A stretch of 64,000 bases of DNA. Source: Ilumatobacteraceae bacterium. GTDB taxonomy: Bacteria > Actinomycetota > Acidimicrobiia > Acidimicrobiales > Ilumatobacteraceae. The position numbers and the translations under genes were made by a program. This document shows positions 176-9,165 of the stretch, one piece after another. The stretch is from positions 1 to 64,000 of the forward strand of contig SHUT01000004.1 in the NCBI GenBank assembly GCA_009691255.1. The letters are read 5' to 3'. The notes below the pieces were generated by a model, which did not search any database, was not told the DNA's origin, and worked only from the letters and a program-made list of their open reading frames with translations. Position 1 is the stretch's first letter; every line of letters starts with the position of its first letter.

Positions 176-2425
176 TCACGAAGGTACTCCGACATAAGTA
201 AGCGTTGGCGCCAAAGGATTGCCCGTGGCGATTGCCAAGGCAATTTGATGGGATCCCGCAGTCAAGTTTGATGATTCGAGCACACTGACAAAGGATATTT
301 TACTGCCCGCTTTTGCTGCTGAAACCTCTCCGATCATGCCTGAGACTCGACCATCTACCAACACCAGACCAACAGCATCATTGGGCATCGCCGAAGTGAG
401 TCGGATCGTACCATTAATCATCAATGGTATATCAGCAAAGCGCGTTGTTCGAATACTAGCAAACTTCTCGTCGCCCTCCAATGTCCATGCTGCTACACGT
501 TTTTCAACAGGTACAAAATTTGTAACAACTGCATTCATTAAACTTCCAAATGGAGCGACAGAAGAAACACTTCCATCAAATGGTACCCACGAACTATATT
601 TGTCGACTCGCGATTGCAGAGTTCCCAAATCAGAAACAAGTCCCGTACTAGCACCGGGCCAAGTAATTGAACGCGATTGACGTACTGGGCAACGCTGTAA
701 CAGACTTTCTCCATCAAATTTCCAACCGGCATCGATTCCCTTTACGGCCGCGATTGTTGGCAAAATGTCGACCGCCATGACAGGACAATCACTTATCTCA
801 GATGTTGTTTGATCGGGATATTTAATAAATAATGGAACCCTATACAAGTCTTCCATGGTGTCAAGGCGCTTGGGGTTTACATTGCGTTTGCTTTGGCCTA
901 GCTCAAAAGTTATTCCATGGTCGGCAGTTACCACAATCATTGTGCGGTCCCAATTCTTAGAAGCCTTCAGTTCGGTAACTAACTTTGTGATTATTGTGTC
1001 GGTGGCAACATACTGTTGAAGAAACCTTTGGTACTGGTCGCGACTGGAGTCCACGCTCTTGGGATTATCCGGAAGAAAATTTGACTTTGCTGAGGTGCGC
1101 AAATCTGTGGAGAGTCTCCATGGCCGATGTGGAAGGAGAACATGTGCAAAGTGCAATGTAGGAATAGTTTGCGAACTTGATCTTTTAATCAATGTCTCTA
1201 GCCTAAGAACTTGAGACACGGGACCACTCGACCTCCACTTCTTCTTTAAATCTTTTATTGACTCGGTTGACTCAAAATGAATAACTGGCTGCGTTGTTTG
1301 GGTCGCTGCATCGTCGGTGGTTTCATCACTTGATACAGCGCTTTGTTCTGCTAGCACGGTAATGTCGCCGAAGTTGCCCCATGCCTCATCGATTGATGGC
1401 AAATGACGGCGTAGGCCAGGCGGCAATAGTTTGTGACCAAGAACAATTGAAGAATCAAGAAGAAACCTTGAGAAGCTGCCCGACTCAACAGACTCTGAGT
1501 TTTTTATCTCCTCAGGCACTGTGTTGGCAGGAAGAATTCCTTCGTTACCCGAGGTGATTGCTACTTTTTCACAAAGCTTCTTAGGGCACAAACTAGTCAT
1601 TATTTCTTGCACATCCATTGCAACATTGCCGCCTAATAGCGTGAACAAGTTTTGGGGATAATTTGCCAGCAGTGGCTCACTATCGCCTTTGGGCAAAACT
1701 CCCGCCAAGATTGATGGAACAGATTCAACCGTCTCCTGCGAAGACGCAGTGTCATTTCGATACCAAGTGCTCAAATCGGCCAACGCAGCAAACCCTGGAA
1801 ACCGTAAAGCATTAATATTTCCGTCGGCATTAAGCAACGGAAACAATGGGGCTTCATCCAAGATCACAACAACAACGCTGATGTCTTCACGAGGCGTTGC
1901 GGTGCTGGCTACTTTGTCTTTATTAATCACAACGTCTGCTGCTCCAATATCGGGAACCCAGACCACATTTCGTGCCGAAATAGTAAAGGAAATGAAAACC
2001 ACCAAACCTAATGGCGACATGATGCGCACCCAAGAACCGATAACTGGCCAAGAAATGTATGCAATGAGCAACGCCAATGCGATACAGCCTGTTGCCAAAA
2101 GTGCAATTAACCACGCATAGAAAGAGAATGAACGCAGGAGAAGCAAGACAACGCTCCAAAGGGCAATGAAAACTAAACCTCTGTGAAAAATCTGCCTCCC
2201 TCGCACATAGGCCGCCGATGCGAGAGTCTCAAGCGCTATCAATATCAAGGGAGGAGCAGTGATAATAAGAAAAGCAAAACCAACGACCTGCCATCCACCT
2301 ATTTTAGAAATAGTGAAGACAGTGAGATTGTTCCCGTACAGTTGCAGAATCGGCTGGGCAACAGAAATTGTGGTCAGTGTTAAATAGGTGAGAAAATGTC
2401 CGAAGACGTTGTCGCGCAGTTTCAC
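176..2425 (-). CDS. Membrane sulfatase/LtaS-like phospho- or sulfo-transferase A
   Basis: Alkaline-phosphatase-superfamily enzyme anchored by about five N-terminal membrane helices (first ~170 residues), followed by an extracytoplasmic catalytic domain. Visible family marks are a metal-binding VVVVILDE strand, a likely Thr nucleophile in SQETVES, LLPHRPW and VTADHG. LtaS-type enzymes move glycerol phosphate or phosphoethanolamine onto envelope glycans, and sulfatases hydrolyse; the sequence does not decide which applies. It is a paralogue of the gene just upstream (2427-4541). I place the start at GTG 2425, 1 nt after that gene's stop, because the protein then lines up with the paralogue N-terminus; a TTG at 2464 would add 13 residues and overlap the neighbour. 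It is last in the four-gene leftward cassette. Specific substrate unknown. Confidence 0.8.
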   Translation of the reverse strand: MKLRDNVFGHFLTYLTLTTISVAQPILQLYGNNLTVFTISKIGGWQVVGFAFLIITAPPLILIALETLASAAYVRGRQIFHRGLVFIALWSVVLLLLRSFSFYAWLIALLATGCIALALLIAYISWPVIGSWVRIMSPLGLVVFISFTISARNVVWVPDIGAADVVINKDKVASTATPREDISVVVVILDEAPLFPLLNADGNINALRFPGFAALADLSTWYRNDTASSQETVESVPSILAGVLPKGDSEPLLANYPQNLFTLLGGNVAMDVQEIMTSLCPKKLCEKVAITSGNEGILPANTVPEEIKNSESVESGSFSRFLLDSSIVLGHKLLPPGLRRHLPSIDEAWGNFGDITVLAEQSAVSSDETTDDAATQTTQPVIHFESTESIKDLKKKWRSSGPVSQVLRLETLIKRSSSQTIPTLHFAHVLLPHRPWRLSTDLRTSAKSNFLPDNPKSVDSSRDQYQRFLQQYVATDTIITKLVTELKASKNWDRTMIVVTADHGITFELGQSKRNVNPKRLDTMEDLYRVPLFIKYPDQTTSEISDCPVMAVDILPTIAAVKGIDAGWKFDGESLLQRCPVRQSRSITWPGASTGLVSDLGTLQSRVDKYSSWVPFDGSVSSVAPFGSLMNAVVTNFVPVEKRVAAWTLEGDEKFASIRTTRFADIPLMINGTIRLTSAMPNDAVGLVLVDGRVSGMIGEVSAAKAGSKISFVSVLESSNLTAGSHQIALAIATGNPLAPTLTYVGVPS

Positions 2426-2426
2426 C

Positions 2427-4541
2427 TTATTTTTCCAATGGACCGACAAGTTCGTATACCCCAATACCGCCGCTCGTGCTGTACATCACCAATGAAACCT
2501 GATGTGGCCCCTTGGTCAAAAGCGTGTAGTCAAGTACCGCTAAGAAATCAAGTTTTCCAGCTTTTGCTCCCGCGAGTTCGTCAACGACGCCAGCCACTTT
2601 GCCGTCTACCAATACTAAACCCTTCGCGTCAGCGGCTAGATCTCTAGCAATATCAATGTCTCCGTAGATTACGGTCGGAGTAATTTGACCGATTCCGGGC
2701 TTTATATTCTCAAACGCTGTTGCCACTGACGAGTGCCATGCCGTCACGGCCGACGACTTCTTATTTGTTGTGACGAGTGTTCCTAACAGACCCTGCTCAT
2801 TAGCCAGTCCTGCAATTTTGTTCAAGGCACCCTCGCGTGACAACCATTTTGCATACCGATTGGAACGCTCCATAACTTGCTCGAACGAACTTGCAATTAA
2901 GCGCGCATCCTTTGTAGTTGTCATCGGCCGCTTGTCGCGCACTGGACACTGACTTCGCAGTGACACACCTTCTAGGTGGGCTTGCGTACGTACTCCGGAC
3001 ACATCCAAAATTGTCGGTAGCAAATCAAGGTTCGTCACAGCGCAGTCATCAACGGCTCCTGCTTCTTGATTTGGCATTTTAATAAACATCGGAATAGTGA
3101 AGAGGTCCGTTACCTGACCCGCATTTGAAAAATCTATTGAACGCTTCATAAGACCTGGTTCGAAAGAAATTCCATGATCAGCAGTTATCACTACGAGTGA
3201 TCTATCCCATAGACCGGCTTTTTGCATTCGTCTAATCAATGATGAGATCATCGAATCAACTGCTCCGAGTTGGTACAAGTACCGTTGCAGATCAACGCGG
3301 GTATCAGACCCTGTCGTCAAGTTGAGGTCACCCAAGAAAGGTGGTGCCGTACTTTTGCGCAGGTCAGGCAACATTAACCAAGGCCGATGTGGTGCAATCA
3401 AATGCAGAATCGTGGCGCTATTGGTTTTAGATTTTGCCAGACGATCGATGGCCTCGTTAAACATTCTGAGTTGAAAAAATGGCCCTCCAGCACGTGTCAG
3501 GTCGAACTTGTCATCTGCTCCGACGGCCTTATTCTTATTGGATTTATTTTCCGCCCCCGTATTTACAGAAAATCTCCCCCATGACTCACCAATGGCTGGC
3601 AACTTATTGCGCAATGATTTGGGCAAGATGCGATGACCAAACACCACTGATGCGTCTTTAAGAAATGTTTTAAGGCGAGGAGCATTAAGTCGCTCAAGAT
3701 CGGTGGGATTGGTTGAAGCACAAACCTGTATTGGGCATAGTGATGTCACGGACTCATAGCCATTGATGGGATACGTGGTTTGGAGCATCGTGAAAATATT
3801 GTCTGGATGAACAGAAAGAAACGGCTGGTCACCTCGTTTTGGAATATTAGAAGTAAAAATTGCGGGAACCGCCTGCGTAGTGTGCTGACTTACGGCAGTG
3901 GCATTTCGGTGCCATGTACTCAGTGAGGCAAGTTTTGCAAAACCCGGAAATCGCTCTGCGTTGATGTTGCCGCTGCTGTCAAGTAGCGCAAAGAGTGGCG
4001 ACTCATCAAAGACAATCAGGACAATCGGTGGCGCCGTAACAGCAGTCGTCGATGACAGAATTGGTTCACTTGATTTACCAAAGACCGGCTGAACTTGCAA
4101 TACAAAGACGCCCACGAGAAGTGGTGCCAGCACTGCGACATAAGAGACGAAGGTGCGTACCATCGCAACACGAAAAATCGCCGCCGTGATTGCTGCGCCG
4201 ATAAGAACGGAGACTCCCAAAGCCACTATGTCCTGAGAAAGGCCAAATTGCCTTGTAATCGCTAAACCAAAGATGCAACAAAGTAACGAAACAAAGCAAT
4301 AGTGAACGATGGTTGCGTACCGAACACTGATGAACCCCACCACCACTTGAACAACAAGGGCAATCACCGTAGGCACAAAGGCCACGATAAAGATGAACAG
4401 TGCCACTTCTAATTCACTTACCTTTGCTGTCGCAAAAATCGGAAGATTCTTGCCGTAGAGATCAAGTATTGGCTGCGAGATCGAAATCGTGGCCAGTGCC
4501 AGCAAAATGACACCATTTTTGACGATGCTTTTGGGTGTCAT
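2427..4541 (-). CDS. Membrane sulfatase/LtaS-like phospho- or sulfo-transferase B
   Basis: A 704-residue tandem paralogue of the downstream gene. It has the same plan: four to five hydrophobic helices in the first ~150 residues, then an alkaline-phosphatase-fold domain with IVFDESPLF (metal site), SQHTTQAVP (probable Thr nucleophile), IAPHRPW and ITADHG. The ATG start overlaps the stop of the methyltransferase gene (ATGA), so the two are probably translationally coupled. The two paralogues have clearly diverged outside the motifs, which suggests separate acceptors or donors rather than a recent copy. Likely role, by inference: modification of a surface polysaccharide or teichoic-acid-like polymer on the outer face of the membrane. 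Confidence 0.8.
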   Translation of the reverse strand: MTPKSIVKNGVILLALATISISQPILDLYGKNLPIFATAKVSELEVALFIFIVAFVPTVIALVVQVVVGFISVRYATIVHYCFVSLLCCIFGLAITRQFGLSQDIVALGVSVLIGAAITAAIFRVAMVRTFVSYVAVLAPLLVGVFVLQVQPVFGKSSEPILSSTTAVTAPPIVLIVFDESPLFALLDSSGNINAERFPGFAKLASLSTWHRNATAVSQHTTQAVPAIFTSNIPKRGDQPFLSVHPDNIFTMLQTTYPINGYESVTSLCPIQVCASTNPTDLERLNAPRLKTFLKDASVVFGHRILPKSLRNKLPAIGESWGRFSVNTGAENKSNKNKAVGADDKFDLTRAGGPFFQLRMFNEAIDRLAKSKTNSATILHLIAPHRPWLMLPDLRKSTAPPFLGDLNLTTGSDTRVDLQRYLYQLGAVDSMISSLIRRMQKAGLWDRSLVVITADHGISFEPGLMKRSIDFSNAGQVTDLFTIPMFIKMPNQEAGAVDDCAVTNLDLLPTILDVSGVRTQAHLEGVSLRSQCPVRDKRPMTTTKDARLIASSFEQVMERSNRYAKWLSREGALNKIAGLANEQGLLGTLVTTNKKSSAVTAWHSSVATAFENIKPGIGQITPTVIYGDIDIARDLAADAKGLVLVDGKVAGVVDELAGAKAGKLDFLAVLDYTLLTKGPHQVSLVMYSTSGGIGVYELVGPLEK

Positions 4542-5938
4542 GTCCGCCGTGCGACGTGGAAAATCGTTCGAGTTCCTCCGGCTAGGAGCATTTTAGTGCG
4601 CACGTCAAAACGCCCTGAGAGCAACTTCTCGAATGTTTCGAGATTGAAATCATCGTGAATGCCCTCCCTCTTGTTCCGCAATAATGTCTTAACCATCGGA
4701 TCATCTGCATGGGGCATTTCGATTACCAATTCAGAGCTGAGATCGCGGAGTAGATCAAGTTGATTCACGATTGGAACGTTGTACGTAAGCGCTAGATGAT
4801 GAATGACCGCAAGATAAAGCACTACGTCTGGTTTGCCACGTGTGAACAAACCTGTTCGTTCGGTGCCTCTCCAGCCAATGCCACCGCCCGTGTCGGCAAG
4901 ATCTACATACAGCGGAATAATCTTTTCGTTATTCTCTTTTCGTAAAGATTGATACAGACGATCAATGACAAGTGGATCGGCGTCCATTGCAACCACATAA
5001 TCCGAATGTGCAGACGCGATGCGACTAAACCGACCGTCGTTGCATCCGATGTCCCACACCTGAGAGCGATGTGACTGAGCAATAGCATCGCGCACGAAAC
5101 GGTCTTTTTCATCAAGGCTGCTTTCTACATAGTGAGCACGATCTGAATAATCAGACCACGTTGACTCTGAGTCCTTGAGAGACAGACTTTGTACAAGCTT
5201 GATGAGTTTTCGAAGTGTCGCGTCAAGAACTGATGCGTTCATTCCGGCGTTCGCAGCTTCTTTTTTTACTTCCACTTTTGTCGCTGAAAATCTGTCTTGC
5301 GCGATTGCGTGCAAGACAACGTGGGTCAATCGTCCGGTGCGGGGTTTCAACAATTTTCGAGGCAACAATTTGCGCATTGTGTCTGGGCTCACACCGTTGA
5401 CAGAACCCCGCAGGAAAGGCTGGTACTGAACCCCCAAATAAGACTGCAGCATGAGTGGATACAGAAACAGTTCACAGAATTGTCTATAGCCATACCAGGG
5501 ATCAGTTGGTTTGCGCAGTTCGAATGAACCTGCATCAATAAACTGTGGTCTAGATCCGATGAACTGAATGTTGTACGGAGTTGCATCTTTGACTCCGACT
5601 CCGTCGGCAAGCGCAGATCGAGTGAGTTCAAGTTGTAGCAGCGCCGCGTCTTTGAGCATCGAAAATGTCCACTCGTATGGATACGAAACCAAGGGTATTT
5701 TTGGGTGTTTCATTGCGGCCACCCATGGTTGACCTAAACCAGCCGAGGACGGTTCGACCATCTCGCATGAAATGAGTTGGCCTGACTTGAGGGCATCTTG
5801 GATTGATTTTTTAGACCAGACAGCATCAAGATCAGATTTTCCGAGCGCAGTGAAGCCACGAAATACGGCATCTCCCGATACAAAAACTCGACTTAATGGA
5901 TCTCTAAAAGACCCAGAGTCCTGAGTCACGTTAGCCAT
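4538..5938 (-). CDS. Two-domain class I SAM methyltransferase (NoeA-like)
   Basis: 466 residues. The C-terminal half holds a Rossmann methyltransferase core with motif I VWDIGCNDGRFS near residue 292, an acidic motif II around VVAMDADP, and VVLYLAVIHH. The N-terminal ~250 residues are a separate domain carrying DATPYNIQF and FIDAGSFE segments, a layout I recall from proteins annotated as NoeA-like nodulation methyltransferases. It is probably cytoplasmic. It sits 5 nt after the small YLDAGTGS gene and overlaps the next gene by ATGA, so it belongs to one operon with the membrane transferases. Methylation of an envelope glycan or its precursor is inference; the acceptor is unknown. Confidence 0.8.
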   Translation of the reverse strand: MANVTQDSGSFRDPLSRVFVSGDAVFRGFTALGKSDLDAVWSKKSIQDALKSGQLISCEMVEPSSAGLGQPWVAAMKHPKIPLVSYPYEWTFSMLKDAALLQLELTRSALADGVGVKDATPYNIQFIGSRPQFIDAGSFELRKPTDPWYGYRQFCELFLYPLMLQSYLGVQYQPFLRGSVNGVSPDTMRKLLPRKLLKPRTGRLTHVVLHAIAQDRFSATKVEVKKEAANAGMNASVLDATLRKLIKLVQSLSLKDSESTWSDYSDRAHYVESSLDEKDRFVRDAIAQSHRSQVWDIGCNDGRFSRIASAHSDYVVAMDADPLVIDRLYQSLRKENNEKIIPLYVDLADTGGGIGWRGTERTGLFTRGKPDVVLYLAVIHHLALTYNVPIVNQLDLLRDLSSELVIEMPHADDPMVKTLLRNKREGIHDDFNLETFEKLLSGRFDVRTKMLLAGGTRTIFHVARRT

Positions 5939-5943
5939 TGCGC

Positions 5944-6132
5944 CTAGTTCGTTGAAGACGAACTATCGCCATCGGCAGCATCTTCTGAGGCAGGGTCAGA
6001 ATTGCTCTTTGATGAGAACTTTGCCTTAAATCGAGACATACCCATTTTGATGGCCACTCCAATACCAGCGATTCCACCCGCGAGGGCAGTCACAATCATG
6101 CTTCCAGTTCCGGCGTCAAGATAGTTAAACAT
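5944..6132 (-). CDS. Small YLDAGTGS-motif membrane protein
   Basis: A 62-residue protein: a short head with YLDAGTGS, one hydrophobic Gly/Ala-rich helix (about residues 12-30), a basic stretch (KMGMSRFKAKF) and a Ser/Asp/Glu-rich tail. Small proteins with an LDxGTGS motif beside envelope methyltransferases and sulfatase-like enzymes are known to me only as hypothetical. I choose ATG 6132 over ATG 6144 because a TATGAT box lies 7 nt before it, matching the leaderless pattern of this genome; the longer start would add four residues. First gene of the cassette; perhaps a membrane adaptor, which is speculation. Confidence 0.75.
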   Translation of the reverse strand: MFNYLDAGTGSMIVTALAGGIAGIGVAIKMGMSRFKAKFSSKSNSDPASEDAADGDSSSSTN

Positions 6133-6227: not shown

Positions 6228-7385
6228 GTGGCCCATGATCCAGATACCAGTGCCATTACGGCTGGGCGAGACGACTCGCAGTCGCTTGCAACTCCGCTGT
6301 GGGCCGCCACCGTGTGGGCTTCTGACGGCCTCGATGACACCGCGGATCGCGCCACATCACTAAGGGCATCTGCTTACTATGGCCGCTACGCCAATCCCAC
6401 CGTATCTCAATTTGAAAAGGCCATCGCTGAACTAGAAGGTGCTGAGTCTGCGATGGCCTTTGCGTCTGGTATGGGAGCGATTGCTTCTGTTGTCCTGGCG
6501 TTTTGTAATTCTGGCAGCCATATCGTGGCACAAAATACCCTGTACGGCGGAACACTTGCATTTTTAGAAGGACCGGGTCGTCGTCTTGGAATTGACGTCA
6601 CTTATGTTGACCCTTCCCAGTCTGGCGCGTTTAGCGCCGCTGTTCAACCTGGTCGCACAATGTTGATACTGGCCGAGACTCCGTCTAACCCGCGACTATC
6701 AATTAGCAACTTGGTTGAGCTCGGAGCAATCAAGGGTCCCTTCACCGTTGTTGATTCAACCTTGGCAACACCAATCACACAACGACCACTCGACTACGGA
6801 GTCGATCTTGTCTTGCATTCAGCGACAAAAGGTATCGGTGGCCACAACGATGCAATGCTGGGTGTAGTTGCTGGCGAAAAAGACTTGATTGATGCACTCT
6901 GGTTGTATGGCGTGCTGCATGGAGCGACAGCATCTCCATACGATGCACTCAATGGCCTACGCGGTATTCGCACTTTACCGGTGCGCCTTCGTCAACAATC
7001 CTCGTCGGCACTTAAAATCGCCAATGCATTGCAAGAACATCAAGAAGTTTCTTGCGTGATGTATCCGCATCTATCGTCACATCCGCAATATACTCTCGCC
7101 AAAGAACAGATGAGCAACGGTGGTTCACTCATTGCATGCGAAATTCGCGGCGGAGTCGAAGCCGTTCGACAAATGTTCACTCGACTTGAAATAATTAATT
7201 GCGCAACATCATTTGGTGGCACCGAAACTCTTGTTTGTCACCCACTGACTAGTACGCATGTTGGCTTACCTACTGAAATGCTTACGGCAATGGGTGTCAC
7301 CGATGGACTTATTCGCTTGTCGATTGGTCTTGAACATCCAGACGACATCATTGCTGAACTAACAGCAGCCCTCTCTCCTCGTTAG
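6228..7385 (+). CDS. PLP-dependent cystathionine gamma-synthase/lyase family enzyme
   Basis: 385 residues, normal length for the Cys/Met-metabolism PLP family. The PLP lysine is K201 in LHSATKGIGGHND; YGRYANPT near residue 51 and AETPSNP near 149 are the usual cofactor and substrate loops. Family members make cystathionine from O-acylhomoserine, cleave cystathionine, or act as methionine gamma-lyase. The loop residues I can read do not settle which, though metX (20.4 kb) in the same window makes a role in methionine synthesis reasonable. GTG start with a leaderless -10 box. Divergent from the envelope cassette and convergent with the DUF1295 gene. Confidence 0.88.
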   Translation: MAHDPDTSAITAGRDDSQSLATPLWAATVWASDGLDDTADRATSLRASAYYGRYANPTVSQFEKAIAELEGAESAMAFASGMGAIASVVLAFCNSGSHIVAQNTLYGGTLAFLEGPGRRLGIDVTYVDPSQSGAFSAAVQPGRTMLILAETPSNPRLSISNLVELGAIKGPFTVVDSTLATPITQRPLDYGVDLVLHSATKGIGGHNDAMLGVVAGEKDLIDALWLYGVLHGATASPYDALNGLRGIRTLPVRLRQQSSSALKIANALQEHQEVSCVMYPHLSSHPQYTLAKEQMSNGGSLIACEIRGGVEAVRQMFTRLEIINCATSFGGTETLVCHPLTSTHVGLPTEMLTAMGVTDGLIRLSIGLEHPDDIIAELTAALSPR

Positions 7386-7395
7386 TAAAGACCGT

Positions 7396-8175
7396 CTACT
7401 TCTTCTTTGGGGGGAGCGGAAAAAACGAGCTTGTCCGCTGCATGTATTGCGCATAGCCGGGCTTGCGCTTTGACATCGAACGCTCAAGCATTGGCACACC
7501 GCTAACTTTCATCAAGAAAAATGTCATTGCGATAGGACCGATAAGACCAATTGCACCAGACCCTGTTTCTGCCGCCACAACGGCGATACCCCACCACGCC
7601 AGCGAGTCACCAAAATAATTTGGATGTCTCGTCAGGCTCCATAAGCCAGTGTCGAGAACTTTGCTGGAGCTATCGGGATCAGCACGAAACCGCGCCAATT
7701 GACGGTCTCCGACGACTTCGAAGCTAATTCCGACGAACCACAAAATAATTCCAATCACCGCGATTGGTCCAATGCTGGGGGTTGCGTCAGCGTTTCCTAA
7801 TTGTACTGGCAACGAAACGATCCACATCAGTGTTCCTTGCAAACCAAATACCGTCACCAAACTATAAATCGGAAACTGTGCGCCCCGTTTTTTGCGCATC
7901 GCAACATAACGCCAGTCCTCGCCTTTACCGTGATTACGCCAGTACAAGTAGCCAGCCAGTCGCAAACCCCAGATAGTGACCATGGCAGTTAGTAACAACT
8001 GGCGCGGTGAATCACCATCGATTGTGATTTGCATGACCCACGCCACCACTACAAACCCAAGACCCCAGACGACGTCTACGATTGAGGCGTTTTTGAGCAA
8101 CACACTCAGCCCCCATGTCGCGAGCATCAATATGGTGATTGCTAGAGCGCTATAAAGCAACGCATTGCCTGCCAT
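7396..8175 (-). CDS. DUF1295 membrane protein (steroid 5-alpha-reductase-like)
   Basis: 259 residues with about six membrane helices. The C-terminal half has the family signature around LWSLTRHPNYFGDSLAWWG, and SFEVVGDRQLARFR just before it, typical of DUF1295/isoprenylcysteine-methyltransferase-like folds. Members are suspected NADPH-dependent reductases of sterol- or lipid-like substrates; the substrate is unknown. It lies 3 nt after the acyltransferase gene, so the pair is probably one transcript with a lipid-related role. Basic C-terminal tail. Confidence 0.85.
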   Translation of the reverse strand: MAGNALLYSALAITILMLATWGLSVLLKNASIVDVVWGLGFVVVAWVMQITIDGDSPRQLLLTAMVTIWGLRLAGYLYWRNHGKGEDWRYVAMRKKRGAQFPIYSLVTVFGLQGTLMWIVSLPVQLGNADATPSIGPIAVIGIILWFVGISFEVVGDRQLARFRADPDSSSKVLDTGLWSLTRHPNYFGDSLAWWGIAVVAAETGSGAIGLIGPIAMTFFLMKVSGVPMLERSMSKRKPGYAQYMQRTSSFFPLPPKKK

Positions 8176-8178
8176 TAG

Positions 8179-9165
8179 TTACCCCATTTTTCTTATTGCG
8201 ATGACTTCGTTTAGTTTTCTGTCCATTTCCAACCACTGCGCATCAAGCCACTCCGCAAAGGCGGCTCCGGAAGGGACGCTCGCGCGAGCATGACGAGTCA
8301 ATACCACTCGAGCTGCTGCTTCTTTGGTAGCTAGGCGCTTAAGCATTCCTCTAAAATTATCAAGACCGTCAAAGCCGACGTGCCATACGGTGATCACATC
8401 GGCAGCGGGCACCGCATCTATCAGTGCCGCAGAGCCAGCAGACTTCGGGGGCAATAAATACTTAAGACTGTTCAGTCGCCCAGCACGTTGAGGGTCTTTG
8501 ATGTGAATTTTCTCAAGTGCATGTTGAAGTTTCTTGGAACTTGTTCGAGTGCCTTCGGGAAATATGATAGCCACATCGCCGTCTGTCATGCCTCGCGCCA
8601 TCTCGGCAATACCAGCGAGTTCTGACTCAGTATTTACTGCTGAACGATCGACGAAATAATTCGGTATCCGACGACCAACGACATCCAGGCATGGGTCAAA
8701 TGACAATTCTTTTTTCAATACAAACCGCGGATTTCGTTGCGCACCCACCGACAACACCCAGCCAGCGGTCAATGCGTCAGCGATACTGGCGTGTCGACAC
8801 AGTGCCACCAATGGTTTAGTCCCCAGTGTGTCAAGCCCTTCGACCTCAACTCGCAAAGAACATGTCACTCGTACTGCTGCAAGTACACGCGCTGACCACC
8901 ACCTTTGGATTGCGTAATGCGCCGACCGACGACCCGACTGTCCTGCGATCCAAAGTGCACCCGCCATCGTGACGCCTGCAATTTCGAGCCAGCACCAACA
9001 AGTGCCAAAAGCCAATAAGCGCACGATCGGCAACCGGAACTTGGTACGCAACACATCAGCAAGAGCGCCCAGGATGAACCACACAGGAAACAACATCACG
9101 AGAAGCACGCCAACTACCAAGACACCGCCAATAGTGAGAAAACGACGAACAAAGGCACTCTTCAC
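8179..9165 (-). CDS. PlsC-family lysophospholipid acyltransferase
   Basis: 328 residues. N-terminal hydrophobic segments (about 10-35 and 50-75) anchor it in the membrane. The acyltransferase block has the catalytic HX4D motif as HASIAD and the substrate motif FPEGTRTS. The family transfers acyl groups to lysophosphatidic acid or related lysolipids. The C-terminal ~100 residues, after the acyltransferase core, are less typical. GTG start: a TAAAAT box ends 6 nt before it and no ribosome binding site is visible, so translation is probably leaderless. Operon with the DUF1295 gene. Confidence 0.85.
   Translation of the reverse strand: MKSAFVRRFLTIGGVLVVGVLLVMLFPVWFILGALADVLRTKFRLPIVRLLAFGTCWCWLEIAGVTMAGALWIAGQSGRRSAHYAIQRWWSARVLAAVRVTCSLRVEVEGLDTLGTKPLVALCRHASIADALTAGWVLSVGAQRNPRFVLKKELSFDPCLDVVGRRIPNYFVDRSAVNTESELAGIAEMARGMTDGDVAIIFPEGTRTSSKKLQHALEKIHIKDPQRAGRLNSLKYLLPPKSAGSAALIDAVPAADVITVWHVGFDGLDNFRGMLKRLATKEAAARVVLTRHARASVPSGAAFAEWLDAQWLEMDRKLNEVIAIRKMG

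What the first reader, a model, noticed from the sequence alone, without database searches (positions are those of the whole stretch)
176..6132. Four-gene envelope cassette: YLDAGTGS mini-protein, two-domain methyltransferase, two tandem membrane transferases
The genes are packed with 5-nt spacing, two ATGA-type junctions and one 1-nt junction. A 62-residue membrane protein, a methyltransferase with an unassigned N-terminal domain, and two diverged LtaS/sulfatase-like enzymes look like a machine that methylates and then decorates an envelope polymer. None of the parts has a confident substrate. This is my best candidate for an undescribed system.
Basis: partly seen in the sequence, partly recalled or inferred. 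Interest (0 to 1): 0.62.

Follow-up and report, generated by a model that had tools for sequence, protein, structure and literature searches.

The report
Widespread kinase-methyltransferase envelope cassette
A small membrane protein, a kinase-methyltransferase and two membrane-bound phosphate-ester enzymes form a gene set that recurs in distant bacteria and also sits, with its smallest gene unnamed, in the noe nodulation operon of a root-nodule bacterium, which suggests a shared way of decorating cell surfaces with a methylated phosphate.

Summary
In detail: four tight minus-strand genes (62-aa membrane mini-protein, 466-aa two-domain enzyme, two tandem alkaline-phosphatase-fold membrane enzymes). 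The cassette is real and widespread, but not wholly undescribed. The two-domain enzyme is a full-length homolog of Sinorhizobium NoeA; its "unassigned" N-terminal domain is predicted to fold as a protein kinase with invariant D118, N123 and D135, and the best PDB sequence match of its methyltransferase half is WbdD, which phosphorylates and then methylates a glycan end. A 2022 paper already describes this family and its conserved neighbours, including NoeB-type proteins. New here: (1) the YLDxGtGS mini-protein is a near-obligate partner (40 of 43 NoeA-type genomes versus 0 of 353 others in one phylum draw; 27 of 30 versus 0 of 129 in a second); (2) it is encoded between nodL and noeA on pSymA; (3) the AP-fold partners carry threonine where sulfatases carry the formylglycine residue, so they look phosphotransferase-like; (4) mini-proteins also accompany CDP-glycerol-type transferases, once inside a phosphonate cluster. 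Best model: a cytosolic kinase-methyltransferase makes a methyl-phosphate group at the membrane; the mini-protein couples it to an outer enzyme that transfers or trims it. Substrate and chemistry are inferred.

The parts
5944..6132 (-). Mini-protein, 62 aa: N-terminal YLDAGTGS motif, one TM helix, basic stretch after it (proposed N-out/C-in)
   Evidence: ORF; motif alignment of 40 minis, Y3 and D5 invariant; net positive charge just after the hydrophobic stretch in 75 of 75 minis; dN/dS about 0.08; no credible Pfam/NCBIfam family
4538..5938 (-). NoeA-type kinase-methyltransferase, 466 aa; residues ~5-250 kinase fold, ~257-466 class I methyltransferase
   Evidence: NoeA homology 98% coverage, 32.3% id, E 4e-61; full model pLDDT 83.9; kinase-domain model pLDDT 90.8 matches protein kinases; MTase half matches WbdD by sequence and class I methyltransferases by fold
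5189..5926 (-). Kinase domain (residues 5-250 of the above) with R27, D118, N123, D135
   Evidence: All four invariant in 97 of 97 aligned proteins
2427..4541 (-). NoeB/LtaS-type alkaline-phosphatase-superfamily membrane enzyme 2, 704 aa; D179, T221, H380, H385, D455, H456
   Evidence: Pfam Sulfatase 1.6e-16; conserved columns; hydrophobic segments
176..2425 (-). NoeB/LtaS-type AP-superfamily membrane enzyme 1, 749 aa from GTG; D203, T245, H441, H446, D515, H516 (numbered from the TTG ORF start at 2464)
   Evidence: Pfam Sulfatase 1.2e-16; 33% identical to enzyme 2; conserved columns

Best explanation
The cassette is a noe-type surface-decoration module. A soluble cytosolic enzyme (NoeA type) phosphorylates a membrane-bound acceptor (most likely a lipid-linked sugar or glycan) with its N-terminal kinase domain and methylates that phosphate with its C-terminal domain, giving a methyl phosphodiester. 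The one-helix mini-protein, with YLDxGtGS outside and a basic tail inside, couples this enzyme to the AP-fold membrane enzyme(s) whose active site lies outside the membrane. Those enzymes, which have the threonine nucleophile of LtaS/EptA-type transferases, act on the phosphodiester: most likely they transfer the methyl-phosphate group to an envelope polymer, less likely they trim it. Shown: gene order, predicted folds, conserved catalytic-site residues, near-obligate co-occurrence. Inferred: phosphate as methyl acceptor, order of steps, coupling role and topology of the mini, polymer as final acceptor. In this genome the AP enzyme is duplicated.
For: Co-occurrence of mini and NoeA-type enzyme in two phylum draws: 40 of 43 versus 0 of 353 and 27 of 30 versus 0 of 129. 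Adjacency in three partly overlapping locus sets: 77 of 79, 10 of 12 and 34 of 35 with enough flank; 2 mini hits elsewhere in the 1,775,264 bases of those loci (128 loci, 122 distinct). Of the 35 phylum loci, 32 were not used to train the mini profile; 31 of these 32 have the mini. AP enzyme within 5 kb in 64 of 71, 8 of 11 and 29 of 32. Of the 16 named loci without one nearby I tested 11 genomes: ten hold a strong AP-family match elsewhere (321-673 bits), the 11th only a weak one (79 bits), while 30 genomes without a NoeA-type enzyme reach at most 73 bits over the C-terminal part. Kinase fold. WbdD is the best PDB sequence match (E 2.4e-4), and the same profile lines D118 up with WbdD's D-x4-N loop, though at 0.3 bits; D351E/A kills WbdD (PMC3482155 passages; that D351 is the aligned Asp is my inference from the spacing to W355). 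Nucleophile column. Mini beside CDP-glycerol-type transferases, one in a phosphonate cluster.
Against: No biochemical data. The WbdD kinase-loop alignment is not significant alone. Arg, not Lys, sits at what I take for the ATP-lysine position (R27 here; the 2022 paper says R38 of its protein; that the two correspond is my inference). The best-scoring PDB sequence match of the AP enzymes is a phosphonate monoester hydrolase. The parts are separable: G113 has two minis and AP enzymes but no NoeA-type match; G108, G225 and G317 have an AP match without the enzyme; relatives L031 and L036 have no AP gene within 8 kb; G181, G287, G583, G664 and G689 have the enzyme without a detected mini. O-antigen-type ABC permease homologs lie near the enzyme in 3 of 128 loci, which suits the capping rival. 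Nod factors, the assumed noe substrate, are secreted signals.
Confidence: 0.5

Rival explanations
1. WbdD-like capping: the enzyme caps the end of a lipid-linked glycan with methyl phosphate to stop polymerisation or mark it for export; the AP enzyme later removes the cap outside.
For: Same two activities predicted and WbdD the best PDB sequence match; WbdD phosphorylates the terminal mannose, then methylates the phosphate (PMC3482155, start of abstract and passages). In L017 the enzyme lies in a run with a family 2 glycosyltransferase, an ABC-2 permease and an ATPase with a Wzt C-terminal domain; permease homologs also near it in L038 and L078.
Against: Domain order is swapped and the chain ends after the methyltransferase, with no coiled coil behind it. 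Such a permease lies near the enzyme in only 3 of 128 loci. WbdD clusters with a mini or AP partner are not known to me (recalled).
Confidence: 0.2
2. Secreted-signal modification: the module modifies secreted lipo-oligosaccharides (as proposed for Nod factors), and the envelope is not the target.
For: NoeA and NoeB are encoded behind nodL; they are hypothesised to modify the Nod factor (PMC9048898 passage); a strain with truncated noeA formed no nodules on 17 of 27 M. truncatula genotypes (PMC4053727 passage).
Against: The 80 named loci include many Micromonospora, Acidimicrobiia, Planctomycetota and others (titles), groups not known to make Nod factors (recalled).
Confidence: 0.15
3. Pseudokinase scaffold: the N-terminal domain only binds nucleotide or substrate, and the methyltransferase acts on a sugar hydroxyl or carboxyl; the AP enzymes act independently.
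For: No ATP lysine at the expected place (R27 here) and, in PMC9758233 section 8, Arg in place of the lysine and no identifiable ion-pair glutamate.
Against: R27, D118, N123 and D135 invariant in 97 of 97, which argues for catalysis; PMC9758233 also calls the active site conserved.
Confidence: 0.12
4. The co-occurrence only reflects co-inheritance of neighbouring envelope genes without a shared reaction.
For: Related genomes inflate counts; the mini profile was built from NoeA-linked minis.
Against: The pattern repeats in two phylum draws with a patchy distribution (43 of 396 and 30 of 159 genomes), and several genomes keep mini and enzyme though they are not adjacent: G356, G011 and G024, G562, G628 and G637 (the mini hits of the last three are among the weakest).
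Confidence: 0.03

Closest known systems
nodL-noeA-noeB operon of Sinorhizobium meliloti pSymA
   Same: Mini, NoeA, NoeB order; NoeA full-length homolog (98% coverage, 32.3%); a 71-aa 'hypothetical protein' with AYLDPGTGS overlaps the noeA start
   Different: One AP enzyme, not two; NoeB only about 16% identical to the window enzymes in the alignment; nodL next to it; symbiosis role
Lani_1194 kinase-methyltransferase family (PMC9758233)
   Same: Kinase plus class I methyltransferase, conserved neighbours incl. AP-fold NoeB-like protein (section 8)
   Different: That text treats it as a putative secreted effector or envelope enzyme; it does not say what its more frequent neighbour (65% of 816) is; no YLDxGtGS protein in the passages read
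WbdD (E. coli O9a)
   Same: Kinase and phosphate methyltransferase in one chain; best PDB sequence match of the profile
   Different: Methyltransferase first, then kinase, then coiled coil (start of abstract and passages); no mini or AP partner known to me
LtaS / EptA type phosphotransferases
   Same: N-terminal hydrophobic segments, AP superfamily, Thr nucleophile, Asp/His ligands (their features recalled)
   Different: Similarity to LtaS is in the C-terminal AP core (E 5.5e-13); donor and acceptor unknown

Membership tests
NoeA family | Full-length two-domain homology to S. meliloti NoeA | tested here: met
   tblastn 98% coverage, 32.3% id, E 4e-61
NoeA family | Protein-kinase-like N-terminal domain with D-x4-N and metal Asp | tested here: met
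   Model pLDDT 90.8; the 50 listed Foldseek matches are protein kinases, AceK included; Z up to 10.7, rmsd 3.7, 193 residues; D118/N123/D135 in 97 of 97
NoeA family | AP-fold NoeB-type neighbour | tested here: met
   Two in the window; 29 of 32 phylum loci
WbdD | Order methyltransferase-kinase-coiled coil | tested here: not met
   Order is kinase-methyltransferase; the chain ends after the methyltransferase
WbdD | Methylates a phosphate it has just made on a glycan end | not testable with these tools
   Needs biochemistry
Sulfatase (formylglycine) | Cys/Ser of C/S-x-P-x-R that becomes formylglycine | tested here: not met
   Both window copies have Thr there, without the P-x-R; column over 113 rows: Thr 98, Ser 13, Pro 1, Gly 1, no Cys. 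Thr aligns to the Cys of a phosphonate monoester hydrolase (that this Cys is the formylglycine site is recalled)
LtaS/EptA-type phosphotransferase | Thr nucleophile, Asp/His metal ligands, N-terminal membrane segments | tested here: met
   which residues define the family is recalled
LtaS/EptA-type phosphotransferase | Transferase activity with a lipid donor | not testable with these tools
   Needs biochemistry; hydrolase relatives score better in sequence

The most novel reading that the evidence does not exclude
A hitherto unrecognised three-part transmembrane machine installs methyl phosphate (or another small phospho group) on bacterial surface glycans: a cytosolic kinase-methyltransferase builds it on a lipid carrier, a one-helix YLDxGtGS subunit couples inside to outside, and an AP-fold transferase moves it to the polymer. 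The same mini-protein serves other headgroup makers (CDP-glycerol-type and phosphonate enzymes), so it marks a general class of two-sided phospho-decoration systems, and the noe host-range genes are one of them.
Probability: 0.3. Interest if true: 0.82.

Novelty: new variant of a known kind. Interest (0 to 1): 0.62.

Why it matters
noeA and noeB have been called host-range nodulation genes since 1995 (title seen in reference lists; paper not held), and the passages I read give their action only as a hypothesis. Showing that they belong, with an unnamed third small protein, to a module found in distant phyla gives a concrete, testable reaction (phosphorylation, phosphate methylation, then AP-type transfer), a handle for annotating genes now called 'SAM-dependent methyltransferase' and 'LTA synthase family protein' (so named in L110), and a role for a widespread small membrane protein family that has no credible Pfam or NCBIfam model.

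Tried and rejected
Plain sulfatases: rejected on the nucleophile column. Methyltransferase with an unknown N-terminus: rejected by the kinase-domain model. Full-length Foldseek/VIA searches listed methyltransferases and did not test the N-terminus, so I folded that domain alone. WbdD is not in the 50 rows listed for either model by fold; this is no evidence against. A family name for the mini: the window mini had none; of 40 members one or two hit unrelated-looking models, the best blaBIC beta-lactamase (E 2.2e-4, 2 of 40), further C-terminal sorting-signal models (VPDSG, PVV, GVDTG; E 0.013-0.034, one member each). I take both for signal-peptide or motif-TM-basic look-alikes. Literature for the motif: 0 papers with five motif spellings. 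The 1995 noe paper is not held. A promoter/terminator scan gave nothing above shuffles. PMC2247475 matched only 'noeana', a plant name. A search on methyl phosphate plus AP superfamily listed 12 papers, none of which, by title and start of abstract, describes the module; a search for the family names gave only PMC9758233 and the WbdD paper.

Rows dropped: loci with too little flank leave the denominators (mini: under 400 bp upstream; AP: under 3 kb on either side and no hit). L028 counts there as without a mini, though searches find a weak one (E 5.8e-6). The three locus sets overlap (6 pairs identical). In some searches I fetched 34 of the 42 non-own NoeA-type loci of the phylum draw (not G181, G287, G322, G452, G477, G483, G498, G505). 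In one search I fetched 13 of 14 non-own order matches (not the 123-base end piece in G013:C110). One search took 11 of the 16 named loci without a nearby AP hit. The AP alignment has 113 rows from 121 ORFs plus NoeB (duplicates and ORFs over 1100 aa dropped); A4 used 21 of the 54 diverse ones. The kinase fold used 64 of 67 rows (three plasmid rows left out). A3 used 40 of the 42 minis. The mini pattern found 75 of 97; the profile found more. G032's mini hit (E 0.003) I take for chance.
Full report
What is there. The four ORFs stand at the stated place on the minus strand of a 1.76 Mb genome (84.6% complete; contig C8), between a divergent Cys/Met-metabolism PLP enzyme gene and a tRNA-Cys. Close relatives are titled Actinomycetota, among them an acIV genome and Ilumatobacteraceae (92% and 88% identical enzyme in L029 and L030). 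Junctions are tight: 5 nt, ATGA, and 1 nt. The mini is under purifying selection (dN/dS about 0.08 in two comparisons).

What the parts are. Pfam gives Sulfatase (AP superfamily) for both large proteins, only weak methyltransferase hits for the two-domain enzyme, nothing for the mini. The two-domain enzyme aligns along 98% of its length with NoeA of S. meliloti (32.3%, E 4e-61). Its profile finds WbdD first among all PDB sequences, through the methyltransferase half (E 2.4e-4). Folded alone with 64 rows, residues 5-250 give a model with pLDDT 90.8; the 50 listed Foldseek matches are protein kinases (CK2, TYK2/JAK2, PknG, AceK and others; best E 4.2e-5, TM-score 0.49), and VIA-align reaches Z 10.7 over 193 residues. 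R27, D118, N123 and D135 are invariant in 97 of 97. PMC9758233 (section 8 read in full) reports the same kind of active site for the family, with Arg in place of the ATP lysine. In the profile alignment to WbdD, D118-x4-N123 and D135 fall on a D-x4-N and an IDFGS stretch of its kinase half, but with 0.3 bits. The order of the two domains is the reverse of WbdD's.

The AP enzymes. Both copies keep the conserved Asp/His set and a threonine at the nucleophile place. Among 113 rows that column is Thr in 98, Ser in 13, Pro and Gly in one each, never Cys, and it aligns with the Cys of a phosphonate monoester hydrolase. So formylglycine sulfatase is excluded as a membership for the window copies; LtaS/EptA-like is the better functional analogy, though the best-scoring PDB sequence is a hydrolase (4upk, E 1.2e-25, mostly the C-terminal stretch). 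Five and six hydrophobic segments lie in their first 200 residues.

The mini. Forty diverse minis share YLDxGtGS, then one hydrophobic helix, then basic residues; Y and D are invariant. Net charge just after the helix is positive in all 75 examined, which predicts motif outside, tail inside. Fourteen of 75, by a crude test, carry a signal-peptide-like stretch ending in AxA right before the motif, S. meliloti among them, so there the mature protein would begin with YLD.

Neighbourhoods. Among 80 titled loci (actinobacterial, planctomycete, proteobacterial, acidobacterial, Leptospiraceae, Ignavibacteria, Elusimicrobia and other titles) a mini lies directly upstream of the enzyme in 77 of 79 with enough flank and an AP gene within 5 kb in 64 of 71; for 13 order-draw loci 10 of 12 and 8 of 11; for 35 phylum-draw loci (window included) 34 of 35 and 29 of 32. 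The sets share six loci. The 80 loci are the best of at least 586, so they lean to near relatives. The mini profile was built from enzyme-linked minis; of the 35 phylum loci 32 were not used for it, and 31 of these have the mini. L016, from another family of the order, has all four genes in the same order and orientation. Mini plus enzyme plus at least one AP gene occur together in 63 of 80, 7 of 13 and 29 of 35 loci, contig ends included.

Genome-level profiles. Own phylum, 396 genomes: NoeA-type enzyme in 43 (E<=1e-20), mini in 40 (E<=1e-4), all 40 within the 43; 0 of the other 353. The pair is adjacent in 39 of 40; in G356 it lies on two contigs. The three without a mini are G181 (distant enzyme), G322 (enzyme cut by the contig end) and G287. 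Order draw, 148 genomes: mini (E<=0.01) in 14 of 14 enzyme genomes and in 2 of 134 others, G113 and the marginal G032. A second phylum (that of G531, the genome of a Vicinamibacterales MAG), 159 genomes: enzyme 30, mini 27, all 27 within the 30, 0 of 129 others; 23 adjacent upstream, 1 downstream, 3 unlinked. The AP family of the window type (A4, E<=1e-40) is in 13 of 14 enzyme genomes and 2 of 134 others of the order, but only in 18 of 43 (and 2 of 353 others) in the phylum, where many partners are more distant, NoeB-like AP proteins that wider queries find. Fisher values run from 1e-15 to 1e-51 but ignore relatedness.

When the AP gene is not next door. Relatives L031 and L036 carry mini and enzyme with no AP gene within 8 kb. 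Of 16 titled loci without a nearby AP hit I tested 11 genomes; all have an A4 match at E<=1e-15, ten of them at 321-673 bits, one (G533) only 79 bits. Of 30 genomes without the enzyme, 14 have a match at that threshold, none above 73 bits, and only over the C-terminal AP core. So the partner is usually kept even when it is elsewhere.

The nodulation link. On S. meliloti pSymA the order is nodL, a 71-aa 'hypothetical protein', noeA, noeB; the 71-aa protein holds AHAYLDPGTGSMLVQ and overlaps noeA. It is present in 61 plasmid records (57 Sinorhizobium, 3 Rhizobium, 1 Ensifer), the same counts for these genera as NoeA matches. In the passages I read, papers name the operon or its genes as nodL, noeA, noeB only; I have not seen the 1995 paper. 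What protein the other conserved neighbour in PMC9758233 is, the text does not say.

Minis elsewhere. In G113 one mini lies tail to tail with a CDP-glycerol glycerophosphotransferase-type gene (PF04464) and another is divergent from an AP enzyme; no NoeA-type enzyme was matched in that genome. In G316:C12 a mini sits between a PF04464 gene and an AP enzyme in a run with PEP mutase/cytidylyltransferase, a TPP enzyme and an iron alcohol dehydrogenase, which I read as phosphonate synthesis. This points to a common theme: headgroup made inside, mini in the membrane, AP enzyme outside. O-antigen-type exporter genes are rare company: a permease homolog in 3 of 128 loci, one with a Wzt C-terminal domain ATPase (L017).

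Reading. The most economical explanation is a two-sided phospho-decoration module. Kinase plus phosphate methyltransferase would turn a phosphomonoester into a methyl phosphodiester, the kind of bond that AP-fold transferases use (LtaS and EptA with lipid donors; recalled). I hold this at 0.5, with the general three-part machine as the bolder case at 0.3.

Known versus new. Known: NoeA/NoeB, the kinase-methyltransferase family and that its neighbours are conserved. New as far as searches show: the mini as near-obligate part, its place in the noe operon, the profiles in two phyla, the nucleophile argument, the wider company of the mini, and the duplicated AP enzyme in this lineage (window and L030; a tandem pair also in L016).

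Noticed in passing
L175 8523-15044 (G316:C12): Phosphonate-type cluster: PEP mutase/cytidylyltransferase, TPP enzyme, iron ADH, PF04464 transferase, mini-protein, AP enzyme; further AP-like ORFs nearby.
   Followed up: partly
L138 8104-9650 and L139 7296-10291 (G113): Mini-proteins in a genome without a NoeA-type match: one beside a CDP-glycerol-type transferase, one divergent from an AP enzyme.
   Followed up: partly
G000:C1:22-144 (L134) and G444:C9:30382-30483 (L170): A second mini-like protein in this genus, next to an HTH_67 gene in L170; no envelope gene recognised beside it.
   Followed up: partly
G000:C3:19735-21231 (L135 7181-9304): A third AP-family homolog in the window's genome, on another contig.
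   Followed up: partly
L031 and L036 versus window 176-4541: Relatives keep mini and kinase-methyltransferase beside the same neighbours but lack the tandem AP genes there.
   Followed up: partly
window 6228-9165: PLP enzyme, DUF1295 protein and acyltransferase flank the cassette; L031 keeps the same three families in the same order.
   Followed up: partly
L017 8946-16618: Enzyme without adjacent mini or AP gene, in a run with a glycosyltransferase and a Wzm/Wzt-like ABC exporter.
   Followed up: partly
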